Source: Clytia hemisphaerica (Eukaryota; Cnidaria; Hydrozoa; Leptothecata; Clytiidae). Taken from it: a DNA stretch of 64,000 nt. Of the stretch, positions 27,601-33,600 are shown in pieces. Position 1 is the stretch's first letter. Every line of letters starts with the position of its first letter. Below the pieces are notes generated by a model, which was given only the letters and a program-made list of their open reading frames with translations, searched no databases and had not been told where the DNA came from. The DNA lies in assembly GCA_902728285.1 (NCBI GenBank), contig CACVBU010001379.1:186001-250000 (forward strand), in the 5' to 3' direction. The translations under genes were made by a program, and so were the position numbers.

Positions 27601-30600
27601 TTCAAAACAAACGAAAAATTTCGTTTCTTATCACATGGTCTATTATGACCAATTAGAAGAGGCCAAATGCTTACCGAGTCTCACCGACTTCTGCGTTCAA
27701 AATATGAACGCGCGCTTCGCCCAAGCCAGTTTTTCATTTGTCTTCAGCCGTATCTTAGCCTTGTAAAAACTGGCTTGGTTAACCAGGCTAAGAAATACGC
27801 TTGATGAAAAGTGGAAGCGTGGAAGATTTTGGTGTGATATTTACGAAATTAAACATGCAGTGTGTCCCAAAAAGGCAGACATATTTTACAAATAAAGTTA
27901 AATCCTCAAAACTCATTAGCTAAACTAGGCTTAGAAGGGGGGGGGGTTGTAGGGGTTCGAAATACGGCTAATCGCCCGTGTAAGAAGCACAACTGACGTC
28001 ATCAAGCTCCATTGGGATACCCTTGCATGTGTTTTTGTCCGTTTTAACATTTTAAACATCAGACGGATCAACGGATCGATGGATCGACAAATAATTGGAT
28101 CAACGGATCAACAGATCAACGGATCATAGGATCATAGGATCAACGGATCGATGGATAATGGATCATGGATCGATGGATCGACGGATCGACGGATCAATGG
28201 ATCAATGGATCGACGGATCAATGGATCAATGGATCGACGGATCGACGGATCGACGGATCAATGGATCGATGGATCGACAGATCAATGAATCAACGGATCG
28301 ACGGATCAATAGATTGACAGATCAATGGATCGATGGATCAGTGAATCGATGGATCAATGGATCAATTGATCAACAGATCAATGGATCGACGGATCAATGG
28401 ATTGACGGAATTCATTCCTAGTGAATGTGATGGTGTAATTGATGGTCCTGGTGAATGTGATGGTGGAGTTGATGGTTCTGGTGAATGTGATAATGGTGTT
28501 GATGGATCTGGTGAATGTGATAATGGTGTTGATGGTTTTGCTGAATATAATGCTGGTGTTGATGGTTCTGGTGAATGTGATGGTGGAATTGATGGATCTG
28601 GTGAATGCAATGGTGGAGTTGGTGGTTCTGGTGAATGTGATGGTGGAATTGATGGTTCTGTTAAATGTGATGATGGAGTTGATGGTTATGGTGAATGTGA
28701 TGGTGGAATTGATGGTTCTGGGTAATGCAATGGTAAATGTGATGGTAGAGTTGGTGGTTCTGGTTAATGTGATAGTGGAGTTGATGGTTTTGGTGAATGT
28801 GATGGTGGAGTTGATGGTTTTGTTGAATGGGATGGTGCAATTGATAGTTCTGGTGAATGCAATCGTGGAATAAATGGTTCTGGTGAATATAATGCTGGTG
28901 TTGATGGATCTGGTGAATACAATGGTGGAGTTAGTGGTTCTGGTGTATGTGATGATGGAGTTGATGGTTCTGTTAAATGTGATGATGGAGTTGATGGATC
29001 TGGTGAATGTAATGGTGGAGTTGATGGTTATGGTGAATGTGATGGTGGAGTTTATGGTTATGGTGAATGTGATGGTGGAGTTGGTGGTTCTGGTGAATGT
29101 GATGGTGGAGTTGATGGTTATGGTGAATGTTATGGTGGAGTTTATGGTTATGGTGAATGTGATGGTGGAGTTTATGGTTATGGTGAATGTGATGGTGGAG
29201 TTGGGTGGTTCTGGTGAATGTGATGGTGGAGTTGATGGTTATGGTGAATGTGATGGTGGAGTTTATGGTTATGGTGAATGTGATGGTGGAGTTGATGGAT
29301 CTGGTGAATGTGATAATGGTGTTGATGGATCTGGTGAATGTAATGGTGAAGTTGGTGGTTCTGGTGAATGTGATGGTGGAATTGATGGTTCTGTTAAATG
29401 TGATGATGGAGTTGATGGTTATGGTGAATGTGATGGTGGAATTGATGGTTCTGGGTAATGCAATGGTAAATGTGATGGTAGAGTTGGTGGTTCTGGTTAG
29501 TGTGATAGTGGAGTTGATGGTTTTGGTGAATGTGATGGTGGAGTTGATGGTTTTGTTGAATGGGATGGTGCAATTGATAGTTCTGGTGAATGCAATCGTG
29601 GAATAAATGGTTCTGGTGAATATAATGCTGGTGTTGATGGATCTGGTGAATACAATGGTGGAGTTAGTGGTTCTGGTGTATGTGATGGTGGAGTTGATGG
29701 TTCTGTTAAATGTGATGATGGAGTTGATGGATCTGGTGAATGTGATGGTGGAGTTTATGGTTCTGGTGAATGTGATGGTGGAGTTGGTGGTTCTGGTGAA
29801 TGTGATGGTGGAGTTGATGGTTATGGTGAATGTGATGGTGGAGTTTATGGTTATGGTGAATGTGATGGTGGAGTTTATGGTTATGGTGAATGTGATGGTG
29901 GAGTTGGTGGTTCTGGTGAATGTGATGGTGGAGTTGATGGTTATGGTGAATGTGATGGTGGAGTTTATGGTTATGGTGAATGTGATGGTGGAGTTGGTGG
30001 TTCTGGTGAATGTGATGGTGGAGTTGATGGTTATGGTGAATGTGATGGTGGAGTTGATGGTTATGGTGAATGTGATGGTGGAGTTTATGGTTATGGTGAG
30101 TGTACAGCAGGAGTTGGTGATTATGGTGTATAAAATGGTGGAGTTGACTGTTCTGGTTAATGTGCATCAGAAGTTGGTGATTTTGGCCAATGTGCAGCAG
30201 GAGTTGGTGATTCTGGTGAATGTGCAGTAGGAGACGGTGATTCTGGTGAGAGAGTAACAGGAGTTAGTGGTTCTGATGGATGTGATGGTGAAGTTAATGG
30301 TTCTGTTAATTGTGAATTAGTAATTGATGATCATGAGCTTGATATTATTGTCAGTTAAAAGGTCTTTGTTATCTTATACATACACTTCCGTCCATACGAC
30401 CTACTAGGATCTAAAATAATGATTAACTGGTATATGAAATTCTCCAGAATTCAAGTATGATACGGTTAAGTCATTTTTCTTGCTTCCCTACAAAAATATT
30501 CATGAAGCTTTGGCGTTTTTTGTTAAAAATCAGACACACAGGGTGACTTCACTCAGAGTACTGTTTTCATAATAAAAAGCCTAAGGAAAAATTACACACT

Positions 30601-33600
30601 TCACTACGGTAAAATAATTAGTGAGAATTAAAAGAACAGCCGATGTAAAACCCCTAATGGAAATGACATCAACTTTCAAATAGTAAACAAAGTAATTAGC
30701 AGAAAATATTAAGACACCCAGATAAGTAAGTAAGACGTCAGATTTCCAACATTTTTTACATGTTTGTTTTGTTAGGTATTTTATACAATAACATATTATA
30801 GTTTAGCTTCTGAAGTTTTCTTGACTATGTTATCTTTCGGGAAGAAAAACATTTCCTCAAATTCTAGCTTTGCAAATTTCAATTTACATAGATGGAAGTT
30901 CTAATTTCAACCTTCAATGTATTTTTCTCAAAGTTGTTGAAATTTTTAATTTCGCCTAGCGAAAGTATTACAATCAGCTTTCGCGGTGCGGAAAAAAAAC
31001 TAGAAAACGAAAGTAATTGATACGTTGGACGAACTCACTAAAATCAATTTACAATTACACACTTGTATAACCACGGACGATTTTCTCAGGTTTTCTTTGG
31101 ATTACGTCATATTATCTTTGTGTCTTTAGCCTTACAGTCTTGATTTTTTCTTTATTTTCTTATAAGCTTTATATAAGAATCAAATCAATAACTCTTGATA
31201 GACGGTGATATACCTTTCGGTAATTAGTTCTTACAAAGTAAACCAGGGATGTCGTGCAATATGAGCATATTCATTTTTTATAAGAATATACTTTTTAAGA
31301 GTTCTTAAAAATTAAAAAACAATTGTTCTTAAACTGGTCTTATTTTTTAGTGATTTTAAGTCTCGTTGTTCTTGTAAAATAGATTTCAGATTAGCTTCAA
31401 TCTCTACTTCTTGTTTTTCCCATGCAGTTCAAGTTGTAGGCGAAATTTTCGACTCCAAGTCGTCTTGTTTGCTATTGTAAATAAACATCCAAACAAAACA
31501 CTGTAGTCAGTTCAACGAATGTTTTGAATAAAGTCAAATGATGCTAAAAAACGCAAGTTCCCACAAAACATTATACAGTAATTCTAGTCGTTATGTAATC
31601 TCAATTAGAGCTCATATAAGCTAGATGGTTTCAAATTGAGCGTTCATTAACTAGCAAAAAAGATCAGATTCACCATAACTATATTGTCATTACTTCCATG
31701 AATAGCATCTCAATTAAAATTTATCAGAATATCAACTCCCGCTGCAAATTCACCAGAACCATCAACACCAGCATTATATTCACCAGAACCATTAACTCCA
31801 CCTTCACATTCACCAGAACCATCAATTCCACGATCACATTCCCCAGAACCATCAATTCCACCATCACATTCATCAGAATCACCAACTCCTGATGCAGAAC
31901 TTCCAGAACCATCAATATTTGATTCTGATCTGTCGATCCATTGATCCGTCGATCCATTGATCCATCGATCCATTGATCCGTCGATCCATCGATCCGTTGA
32001 TCCATCGATCCAATGATCCGTCGATCCATTGATCTGTCGATCCATTGATCCATTGATCCATTGATCCGTCGATCCATTGATCCGTCGATCCGTCGATCCG
32101 TCGATCCATTGATCCGTCGATCCATTGATCCGTCGATCCATTGATCCGTCGATCCATTGATCCGTCTGATGTTTAAAATGTAGAACGGACAAAAACAAGG
32201 GTAGCTCAATGGAGCTTGATGACGTCAGTTGTGCTTCCTACACGGGCGATTAGCCCGAATTACCGTTTTCCCGTCAAAATTTTTGCTGAATCCCGGAATC
32301 CCGAAAATTGAAAAAATAATAAACCGTCACACCGGCTTGTACAGGGCAAAAATGTACCTAAATACCGTCACCGTCTGATTTTAAAATACCGTTTTCCCGT
32401 CTCTTTTTTCGTCAAATCCCGTAATACCGTACTAAAAAAGGGCCAATCCCGTCACACCGTATAAGTACAACCCCCCCCCCCTTAGAAGAATTGAAATAAA
32501 ATTACAATTCTCTTTTCAATCATTCAATACCAAAACAGTAAAGCAAACCAACAAATTAAGGTAGAAAAGAATCAAAAAACTTTGAATTTTTTACATCTAT
32601 GATTTCTGTAATATTTCGACACTTCGACACTTATCGAACAACATCATCTCTACAAATGTTGAAAATACTTCAGGCACGACGGAAGCTTTTTATATCTGGT
32701 ACGGCGAATGACGAAATTTAAGCGATTTTATAGCGATTTTACCGACGAAGAGGAAAACTTCGGGTATTTTTGTGAAAATCTGGTACGGCAGCCGCCGTAC
32801 CTGCCGTACCCGTTGCGTCGTGCCTGTACTTCATACATTTAAGGTATGAAATCATGATAAAATTGACATTAATCTTTAAAGCAGACCATCAGAAAAATAC
32901 ACGTTTTTTATAAGAACATAAGGTTGGTATTTGATCAAATTCTATATTTGAATGTTTTCTTACACTACGGAACAAACAGCTGATTTGTTGCAAAAGACGT
33001 ATTGTCTCAATACTGCTCATAATATTTTGGCACTTTTCTTAAATAGCACTGGCTGAAGACCAAGAAAACCCTTCCCCTGTCTACAAAGCTGTTGGAGCCC
33101 GGGGAGCGGGGATTGCTTTAGGAATAGTCTGAATTTCTAAAAAATGCCAACATTTATGAGCTTGATCTATGGTGCATATCATGAATACTTATGAAAATAT
33201 TTTTGAGGAGAACAGATCCTTCCACCTACCTTTGAAAGGCTCGCATTTGGTATCTTCTGAATTGAAAATAAAAACATGTCTCCCCATATCTTCGCCTTCA
33301 GTAGCCGTCGACATCATGGAAACACTGTTGCTAAGTGACTCAAACAGTCTCCATGAACAACCGGGTGCTGACCAGCCCACTGTTGCATCCTGGGTTTCCA
33401 AATTCTTATAATAAAATATCCCATAAGTCTTTAGCTCATCGTAAGCTAAGAATAACTGAAAAGTGTTCTTAGGTTCTGAGTTGTTGAAGCTTGATATATC
33501 TTTATAAGTAATAATAATGATGTTCTTAGCTTTGAATGACGTCATTTTGAGGATCAGTGAAACGAGGCTGGAATTTTTTGTTTGTTGGAAAAAGATGTCG

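What the first reader, a model, noticed from the sequence alone, without database searches (positions are those of the whole stretch)
27930..32488. Satellite-armed foldback transposon with a perfect 8-bp target duplication
CTTAGAAG sits on both sides of a 4.5-kb unit whose arms contain, in mirrored order, the same unique segment, an 8-bp satellite and a 30-bp satellite. The target duplication shows that the whole assembly moved as one piece. G9/C10 termini and two nested satellite classes within inverted arms are unusual. Inference: a hAT-like or Foldback-like non-autonomous element that generates or spreads satellite DNA.
Basis: partly seen in the sequence, partly recalled or inferred. Interest (0 to 1): 0.8.

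Follow-up and report, generated by a model that had tools for sequence, protein, structure and literature searches.

The report
Satellite-armed foldback transposon inside a MITE
The 4.5-kb structure is not one mobile element but two: a common 250-bp transposon that was later split by a rarer hairpin-like transposon whose two mirrored arms are built of short repeated DNA, an otherwise known kind of element.

Summary
The sequence features are real, but they are two nested insertions. The outer G-run/C-run ends and the CTTAGAAG repeat belong to an abundant ~245-bp MITE (27938-27965 plus 32256-32480). All 29 other copies that I aligned are unbroken at the window's junction. The satellite-armed unit is a separate 4290-bp element, 27966-32255. 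It has its own ends (GGCTAATCGCCCGTGTA...) and its own 8-bp target duplication, CGAAATAC/CGAATTAC (7/8).

The inner element belongs to a low-copy family: 30 ends in 417 Mb, control 0. Of 11 paired copies, 7 have an exact 8-bp duplication, 2 have 7/8 and 2 have none. Two groups share the 35-bp end but carry different GGATC-based arrays. Elements run from 2.0 to 24.8 kb. No transposase was found in the parts read. The 30-bp satellite is not the element's own: it occurs at 913 places genome-wide, also in arms of a foldback with other outer repeats. It joins the GGATC array at one breakpoint in 3 of 4 arms.

Best reading: a non-autonomous Foldback-type DNA transposon like Tetris, Tm1 or Galileo, with GGATC arrays probably acting as repeated transposase-binding sites. 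hAT is not supported.

The parts
27930..27937 (+). Left direct repeat CTTAGAAG of the outer MITE (6 to 8 bp of it is target duplication)
27938..27965 (+). Short piece of the split MITE (G9-TTGTAGGGGTTCGAAATAC)
   Evidence: 10 of 10 listed matches to this piece end at query base 36 = 27965
27958..27965 (+). Left target duplication of the inner element, CGAAATAC (inside the MITE piece)
27966..32255 (.). Inner satellite-armed foldback element, 4290 bp
27966..28000 (+). Left 35-bp end shared by both groups of the family (GGCTAATCGCCCGTGTAAGAAGCACAACTGACGTC)
28001..28064 (+). Rest of the left unique arm segment
28065..28409 (+). Left 8-bp array, unit GGATCRAY, about 42 units
28421..30305 (+). Left 30-bp array, about 62 units
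30306..31730 (.). Middle domain; no ORF of 150 aa or more lies within it
30943..31470 (+). Abundant interspersed repeat inside the middle domain (other copies have repeated hits about 124 bp apart)
   Evidence: 195 matches, 1431 candidates of which 40 scored
31731..31925 (-). Right 30-bp array, about 5-6 units, with the junction to the 8-bp array at its outer edge
31926..32166 (-). Right 8-bp array, about 30 units
32167..32255 (-). Right unique arm segment; 32221-32255 is the 35-bp end
32256..32263 (+). Right target duplication of the inner element, CGAATTAC (7/8)
32256..32480 (-). Long piece of the split MITE, ends in C10
   Evidence: 39 of 39 non-self listed matches stop at query 231-236 of 339
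32481..32488 (+). Right direct repeat CTTAGAAG of the outer MITE

Best explanation
Two insertions, in this order. First, a ~245-bp MITE with G-run/C-run ends entered the site and duplicated 6 to 8 bp (TTAGAA to CTTAGAAG). Second, a non-autonomous Foldback-type DNA transposon inserted into the MITE 28 bp from its G-run end, by cut-and-paste with an 8-bp staggered target cut (shown: duplication, empty sites, other copies). The transposase is supplied in trans and is not identified (inferred). It recognises the 35-bp end plus the arrays of GGATC, which stand next to 28 of 30 ends with group-specific spacers and act as many repeated binding sites (inferred, by analogy with Galileo). The arrays grow and shrink by slippage and unequal exchange, so arms differ in length (inferred). 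The middle is free to vary: it holds other repeats, retroelement fragments or next to nothing. The 30-bp satellite of this copy and of the C797 copy came from outside by a join inside a GGATC-like variant unit (breakpoint shown; direction inferred).
For: Nesting: (29 of 29 unbroken MITEs; GTATTTCG, the duplicated 8-mer, present exactly in 27 and as GTATTTTG in 2). Family and duplication: 30 ends with at most 3 mismatches to the 35-bp end, control 0. Of 11 paired copies, 7 have 8/8 and 2 have 7/8. In the 7 exact cases a repeat of 8 fits and repeats of 7, 9 and 10 do not; random 8-mer pairs match 8/8 at 5.75e-5. Arrays: at least 5 GGATC in the first 400 nt of 28 of 30 ends. In group A (417 units, 13 arms) GGATC positions are 96-99% constant and positions 6 and 8 are 51-52%. 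In group B (661 units, 14 of 17 ends; C349, C884 and C94:205036 left out) they are 90-95% against 46% at position 6. Middles: C797 has about 10 bp between its opposed 30-bp arrays; C554 holds a reverse transcriptase (RVT_1, 2e-26); C120 holds another satellite-armed foldback. Junction.
Against: No transposase in the copies read: of 10 ORFs from C788, C523, C622 and C554 scanned none hit a transposase family, and no listed MULE, IS1595/Merlin, KDZ or hAT hit lies inside a paired copy (best candidates only), so the enzyme is unknown. Position 7 in group A (97%) and position 8 in group B (93%) are also constant, so the conservation is not confined to GGATC, and satellite homogenisation alone could explain it. 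Two ends have the 35-bp sequence without any array (C884, C94:205036). C254 and C805 have no matching duplication. The window's own duplication is 7/8. The 30-bp junction unit was not seen in L092.
Confidence: 0.85

Rival explanations
1. One reading: one hAT-like or Foldback-like element bounded by G9/C10 and CTTAGAAG, moved as one piece.
For: CTTAGAAG on both sides; inverted arms.
Against: G/C-run ends with 28 and 225 bp are the halves of a MITE that is whole elsewhere; 10 other paired copies of the arms start at GGCT or a near variant, not at a G-run.
Confidence: 0.02
2. The inner element is mobilised by a Mutator-like (MULE) transposase, as in Tm1 and FARE.
For: Ends begin with GG; 8-bp duplications fall near the MULE range of 8-11 (recalled); a second satellite-armed foldback in the same genome, nested in copy C120, also begins GGC and has a 9-bp duplication GTAAAATGG 9/9; MULE domains are present (91 hits); most foldbacks are assigned to Mutator (PMC4079207, discussion part 1 read).
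Against: None of the 91 hits lies in a paired copy; 8 rather than 9 bp in all 7 exact cases.
Confidence: 0.45
3. The arrays are passive satellites with no role; GGATC is shared only because both groups descend from one ancestral array.
For: Both groups share the 35-bp end; tandem arrays homogenise by themselves; array lengths vary widely; two ends have no array.
Against: The same five letters stay constant across groups while spacers differ and, in group B, unit spacing changes (8 in 877, 7 in 294, 10 in 125, 9 in 42 of 1448); 28 of 30 ends keep an array next to the end.
Confidence: 0.35
4. The 30-bp satellite array is a gene fragment (coding repeat) captured by the element.
For: Long open frames in several frames.
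Against: Several frames on both strands are open because the unit holds few stops; the unit is found at 913 places in both orientations. Selection by codon position was not tested.
Confidence: 0.04

Closest known systems
Tetris (Foldback, Drosophila virilis; PMC4079207, abstract, section 10 and section 16 part 1 read)
   Same: Non-autonomous; arms with a terminal domain followed by tandem repeats of variable number; variable non-coding middle; duplications of 8-10 bp; few complete copies; transposase not found; tandem repeats also found outside the element.
   Different: 220-bp repeats instead of 8- and 30-bp; here the 35-bp end is shared by two groups with different short satellites; the 30-bp repeat probably came from elsewhere.
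Tm1 (Mutator/Foldback, root-knot nematodes; PMC3169594, abstract, section 9, discussion part 1 read)
   Same: Low copy; conserved end motifs followed by variable numbers of short units (8-21 bp, best conserved at one end of the unit); arms of one element differ in unit number; one group with probably acquired host sequence.
   Different: 9-bp duplications; a transposase-bearing copy is known; short non-inverted end motifs lie outside the inverted repeats, not seen here.
Galileo (P superfamily, Drosophila; PMC3688188 and PMC3573991 abstracts and outlines read)
   Same: Long internally repetitive arms; the transposase THAP domain binds sites repeated in the arm arrays; solo ends; linked to inversions.
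   Different: P-type transposase identified there; no sequence relation tested here.
TU elements of sea urchin and Drosophila FB (recalled; cited in PMC4079207)
   Same: Inverted arms with short tandem repeats (recalled).
   Different: Not compared by sequence.

Membership tests
Foldback elements (structural class) | Long inverted arms with internal tandem repeats of variable copy number | tested here: met
Foldback elements (structural class) | Variable middle domain between the arms | tested here: met
   Element lengths from 1996 bp (C797) to 24.8 kb (C120)
Foldback elements (structural class) | Target duplications of fixed length | tested here: met
   7 of 11 exact at 8 bp, 2 of 11 at 7/8, 2 of 11 none
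hAT superfamily | 8-bp target duplication | tested here: met
hAT superfamily | Ends beginning CA(R)G and duplication of nTnnnnAn type (both recalled) | tested here: not met
   Ends begin GGCT or a near variant; nTnnnnAn in 0 of 9 left duplication copies: T at position 2 in 0, A at position 7 in 2
hAT superfamily | hAT transposase in a copy with these ends | tested here: inconclusive
   None of 99 PF05699 matches lies in a paired copy; 150 of 159 candidates scored
Mutator-like (MULE) | Duplications of 8-11 bp, most often 9, ends beginning with G (recalled) | tested here: inconclusive
   8 bp and GG start; compatible, not diagnostic
Mutator-like (MULE) | MULE transposase in a copy with these ends | tested here: inconclusive
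   None of 91 PF10551 matches lies in a paired copy
Merlin (IS1595-like) | Transposase in a copy with these ends | tested here: inconclusive
   None of 68 PF12762 matches lies in a paired copy
KDZ/Zisupton | Transposase in a copy with these ends | tested here: inconclusive
   None of 110 PF18758 matches lies in a paired copy
P superfamily (Galileo type) | THAP/P transposase in a copy | not tested
MITE (outer element) | Short, abundant, inverted G-run/C-run ends, direct repeats at the ends | tested here: met
   239-254 bp in 27 parsed copies and 1003 candidates; end repeats of at least 6 nt in 21 of 27 parsed (of 29), against about 4% in mispaired controls

The most novel reading that the evidence does not exclude
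This genome holds a pool of interchangeable arm parts: one transposase system recognises a short GGATC motif repeated at loose spacing. Foldback families swap whole satellite modules between unrelated ends, so that new satellite-armed transposons are assembled by joins inside look-alike units, and these elements then break chromosomes. Two single ends on different contigs, C342 and C739, carry the two halves of one 8-bp duplication, GGCTTCTG.
Probability: 0.25. Interest if true: 0.6.

Novelty: new member of a known kind. Interest (0 to 1): 0.38.

Why it matters
It shows how a convincing single transposon in one window can be a transposon inside a transposon, and gives a family in which the terminal sequence is held fixed while the neighbouring satellite was changed. 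That is a natural experiment on which part of a foldback arm the transposase needs. The shared breakpoint between the GGATC array and the 30-bp satellite documents satellite exchange between foldback families.

Tried and rejected
A single unit bounded by CTTAGAAG: rejected. hAT membership: end letters and duplication pattern do not fit. Autonomous partner: searched through MULE, IS1595, KDZ and hAT domains (no match in the 11 paired copies nor within 100 kb of a single end, by comparing listed coordinates) and through ORF lists of C797, C523, C788, C254 and C622 (at least 90 aa), of 6.3 kb of C554 and of 8 kb of C120 (at least 70 aa). Of these ORFs 14 went to Pfam (4, 10): one reverse transcriptase, no transposase. 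P/THAP was not searched. Copies C884 and C94:205036, which carry the end without an array, were looked at for 1.5 kb only; an ORF list was made for C884 alone, and it shows nothing longer than 96 aa that lies wholly inside the element. A Penelope-like reading of the ORF shared by C523, C788, C254 and C622 is recalled from its letters; Pfam and PDB gave only sub-threshold, unrelated matches. Species: not determined; the window's genes (nidogen-like, rhodopsin-type receptor, MFS, ankyrin) suggest an animal. Papers: no description of this family was seen in the listings; without a species name that is weak evidence. A search for TU-element papers found only the Tetris paper.
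Full report
What was checked. The window is G000:C941:186001-250000 of a 417-Mb, 951-contig genome. CTTAGAAG is present twice, at 27930-27937 and 32481-32488 and nowhere else in the window (about 2 expected by chance). Immediately inside are G9 and C10. The arms carry, in mirrored order, a unique segment, an 8-bp array (28065-28409; 31926-32166) and a 30-bp array (28421-30305; about 31731-31925). The description of the arms is right.

Two elements, not one. Searching the genome with the left 131 bases splits the query at base 36. Of the 40 rows listed, 1 is the window itself, 10 match the outer piece and all 10 end at 36, and 29 match the arm and begin at 28-42. 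With the right 339 bases, all 39 non-self rows of the 40 listed (1003 candidates) begin at query 1-14 and stop at 231-236, where the arm begins. These are copies of a roughly 245-bp MITE. I aligned 29 of them (all loci delivered except the window itself). In 29 of 29 the sequence runs without a break across the window's junction; the 8-mer GTATTTCG stands there once, exactly in 27 and as GTATTTTG in 2. In the window it stands twice, as CGAAATAC (27958-27965) and CGAATTAC (32256-32263) on the plus strand, one on each side of the arms. That is an empty site and a target duplication for the inner unit, 27966-32255, with 1 of 8 letters changed. Two of the 29 (L025, L029, both on contig C869) share flanks and may be one duplicated locus.

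The outer MITE. Among 29 loci, 27 could be parsed for end repeats (L036 and L039 could not): an exact direct repeat of at least 6 nt is present in 21, of 4-5 nt in 3 and none in 3; the commonest length is 6 (9 of 27). In mispaired controls about 4% reach 6 nt. Because the C and G at the edges of CTTAGAAG continue the C and G runs, its true duplication in the window may be TTAGAA.

The inner family. A 35-base end sequence, with at most 3 mismatches, occurs 30 times in the genome, 15 in each orientation; the reversed control gives 0. An 18-base core with 2 mismatches gives 31 places against 4 in the control, and adds only C410 and a probable chance hit at C796. Twenty-two ends form 11 inward-facing pairs; 8 are single. 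The 8-bp flanks of the pairs match 8/8 in 7 (C523, C788, C622, C120, C355, C554, C818), 7/8 in 2 (window, C797) and not in 2 (C254, C805). In the 7 exact cases repeats of 7, 9 or 10 do not fit. Random 8-mer pairs match fully at 5.75e-5 and in at least 7 of 8 at 8.4e-4. Lengths run from 1996 bp (C797) to 24,768 bp (C120, from the coordinates). I conclude that the family moves by an 8-bp-duplicating cut-and-paste reaction.

Two groups, one end. In group A (window, C797, C523, C788, C254, C622, C94:395875) the 35-bp end continues ATCAAGC and is followed by GGATCRAY units. In group B (C120, C355, C554, C805, C818 and most singles) it continues ACGTA and is followed by GGATCTYG and then GGATCRTT units. 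C884 and C94:205036 have the end but no array. Counted over all 30 ends, 28 have at least 5 GGATC in the first 400 nt. Units lying between two GGATC 8 bases away were scored with their own letters free. Group A: 417 units from 13 arms, GGATC positions 96-99% constant, positions 6 and 8 51-52%, position 7 97%. Group B: 661 units from 14 arms (C349, C884 and C94:205036 left out), GGATC 90-95%, position 6 46%, position 7 84%, position 8 93%. GATC-to-GATC spacing is 8 in 505 of 595 in A; in B it is 8 in 877, 7 in 294, 10 in 125 and 9 in 42 of 1448. What both groups keep is GGATC. I infer a repeated recognition motif; drift plus homogenisation of an ancestral array is not excluded. A 29-base piece of the A array has 160 places; 100 are listed, and 99 of these lie on contigs of this family, C410 included, the other at C296:84889: the 8-bp satellite is essentially the element's own.

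The 30-bp satellite is probably borrowed. It has 913 places with at most 3 mismatches, control 0. Three small loci read (L090-L092) show it in inverted arms whose outer repeats are GTAACGAGTGG-like; no GGCT end is seen in the 1.6-2.0 kb read of each. In 3 of 4 arms of the window and C797 copies (not in the window's left arm) the GGATC array passes to the 30-bp satellite at the same point, gatca/GAATCAAA. The same variant unit sits inside 30-bp arrays in L090 (one arm) and L091 (both arms, one as GAAGCAAA), at 84-88% identity over 90 bases; it was not found in L092. GAATCAAA resembles a GGATCAA unit, so a join by short homology is likely (inference).

Middles. In C797 only about 10 bp separate the opposed 30-bp arrays. 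The window's middle holds at 30943-31470 an abundant repeat; every listed match other than the window itself falls within query 613-1159 of 1401 (list cut; 40 of 1431 candidates scored), so the rest of the middle has no listed relative. C523, C788, C254 and C622 share an ORF that I read as Penelope-like from memory; Pfam and PDB gave no support. C554 holds a reverse transcriptase, RVT_1 E 2e-26. Of C120, 8 kb of the middle and 1.5 kb at each end were read, of 24.8 kb. They hold two ORFs that look LINE-like to me but have no Pfam hit, and a further satellite-armed foldback, L089:2940-5274, 2335 bp, 46-bp units, ends GGCATACCGG, duplication GTAAAATGG 9/9.

Transposase. None of the matches to MULE (91), IS1595 (68), KDZ (110) or hAT (99) lies in a paired copy, nor within 100 kb of a single end, by comparing listed coordinates; these lists cover best candidates only, and four middles were not fully read. 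The superfamily is open. MULE is favoured by the GG start, by the 9-bp-duplicating relative in the same genome, and by precedent (PMC4079207 and PMC3169594, discussions read in part); 8 rather than 9 bp and the lack of a linked transposase count against certainty. hAT fails on end letters and duplication pattern (both criteria recalled).

Rearrangement hint. Two single ends, C342 and C739, show no homology between their 1.5-kb flanks but carry the two halves of one 8-bp duplication, GGCTTCTG (8/8). Neither lies at a contig end: C739 is 197 kb long with the end at 63 kb, and 1.5 kb of sequence follows on both sides in both loci. With 12 unpaired ends (66 pairs) the chance rate gives about 0.004. 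C254 and C805, which lack matching duplications, fit the same picture. Against it: the same scan also pairs ends of different copies at 7/8 (C120 with C805, C805 with C355, C884 with C355), as expected of AT-rich targets, and misassembly is a rival. C349 is a 98.9% duplicate of C818's right end over 1500 flank bases, so copy numbers may include haplotypes.

Known relatives. Tetris, Tm1 and Galileo share the plan: fixed end, tandem repeats of variable number, variable middle. Galileo's transposase binds sites repeated in its arms (PMC3688188, abstract). This family is a further member of that structural kind. What is less usual is one 35-bp end with two different GGATC satellites and the uptake of a satellite shared with another foldback.

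Noticed in passing
G000:C342:1374996 (L060) and G000:C739:63228 (L065): Two single ends of the family on different contigs carry the two halves of one 8-bp duplication GGCTTCTG: possible element-mediated rearrangement, or misassembly.
   Followed up: partly
L089:2940-5274 (G000:C120): Another satellite-armed foldback, 2335 bp, 46-bp units, arms 98% alike over 330 nt, ends GGCATACCGG, 9-bp duplication GTAAAATGG, itself among arrays of about 100-bp units within the 24.8-kb element.
   Followed up: partly
L090, L091, L092: A further foldback family with GTAACGAGTGG-like outer repeats and the 30-bp satellite in its arms; L090 and L091 share flanks in opposite orientation (by eye), so the real element is probably larger.
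   Followed up: partly
window 48714-49443 and 57678-58407: 730-nt inverted repeat, 95% alike, 8.2 kb apart.
   Followed up: no
window 11755-12285: Tandem array of a 166-bp unit that contains GATGACGTCATC.
   Followed up: no
window 30943-31470: Very abundant interspersed repeat whose other copies show repeated hits about 124 bp apart; a similar tail is seen by eye in L020.
   Followed up: partly
window 22435-22986, 33189-33719: Nidogen-like (NIDO) coding segments on the minus strand on both sides of the insertion, perhaps a tandem gene family.
   Followed up: no
the 35-bp ends, L058-L087: TGACGTCA, a CREB/ATF-type palindrome (name recalled), stands at the inner edge of the 35-bp end; the last A is present in 29 of 30 ends.
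   Followed up: no
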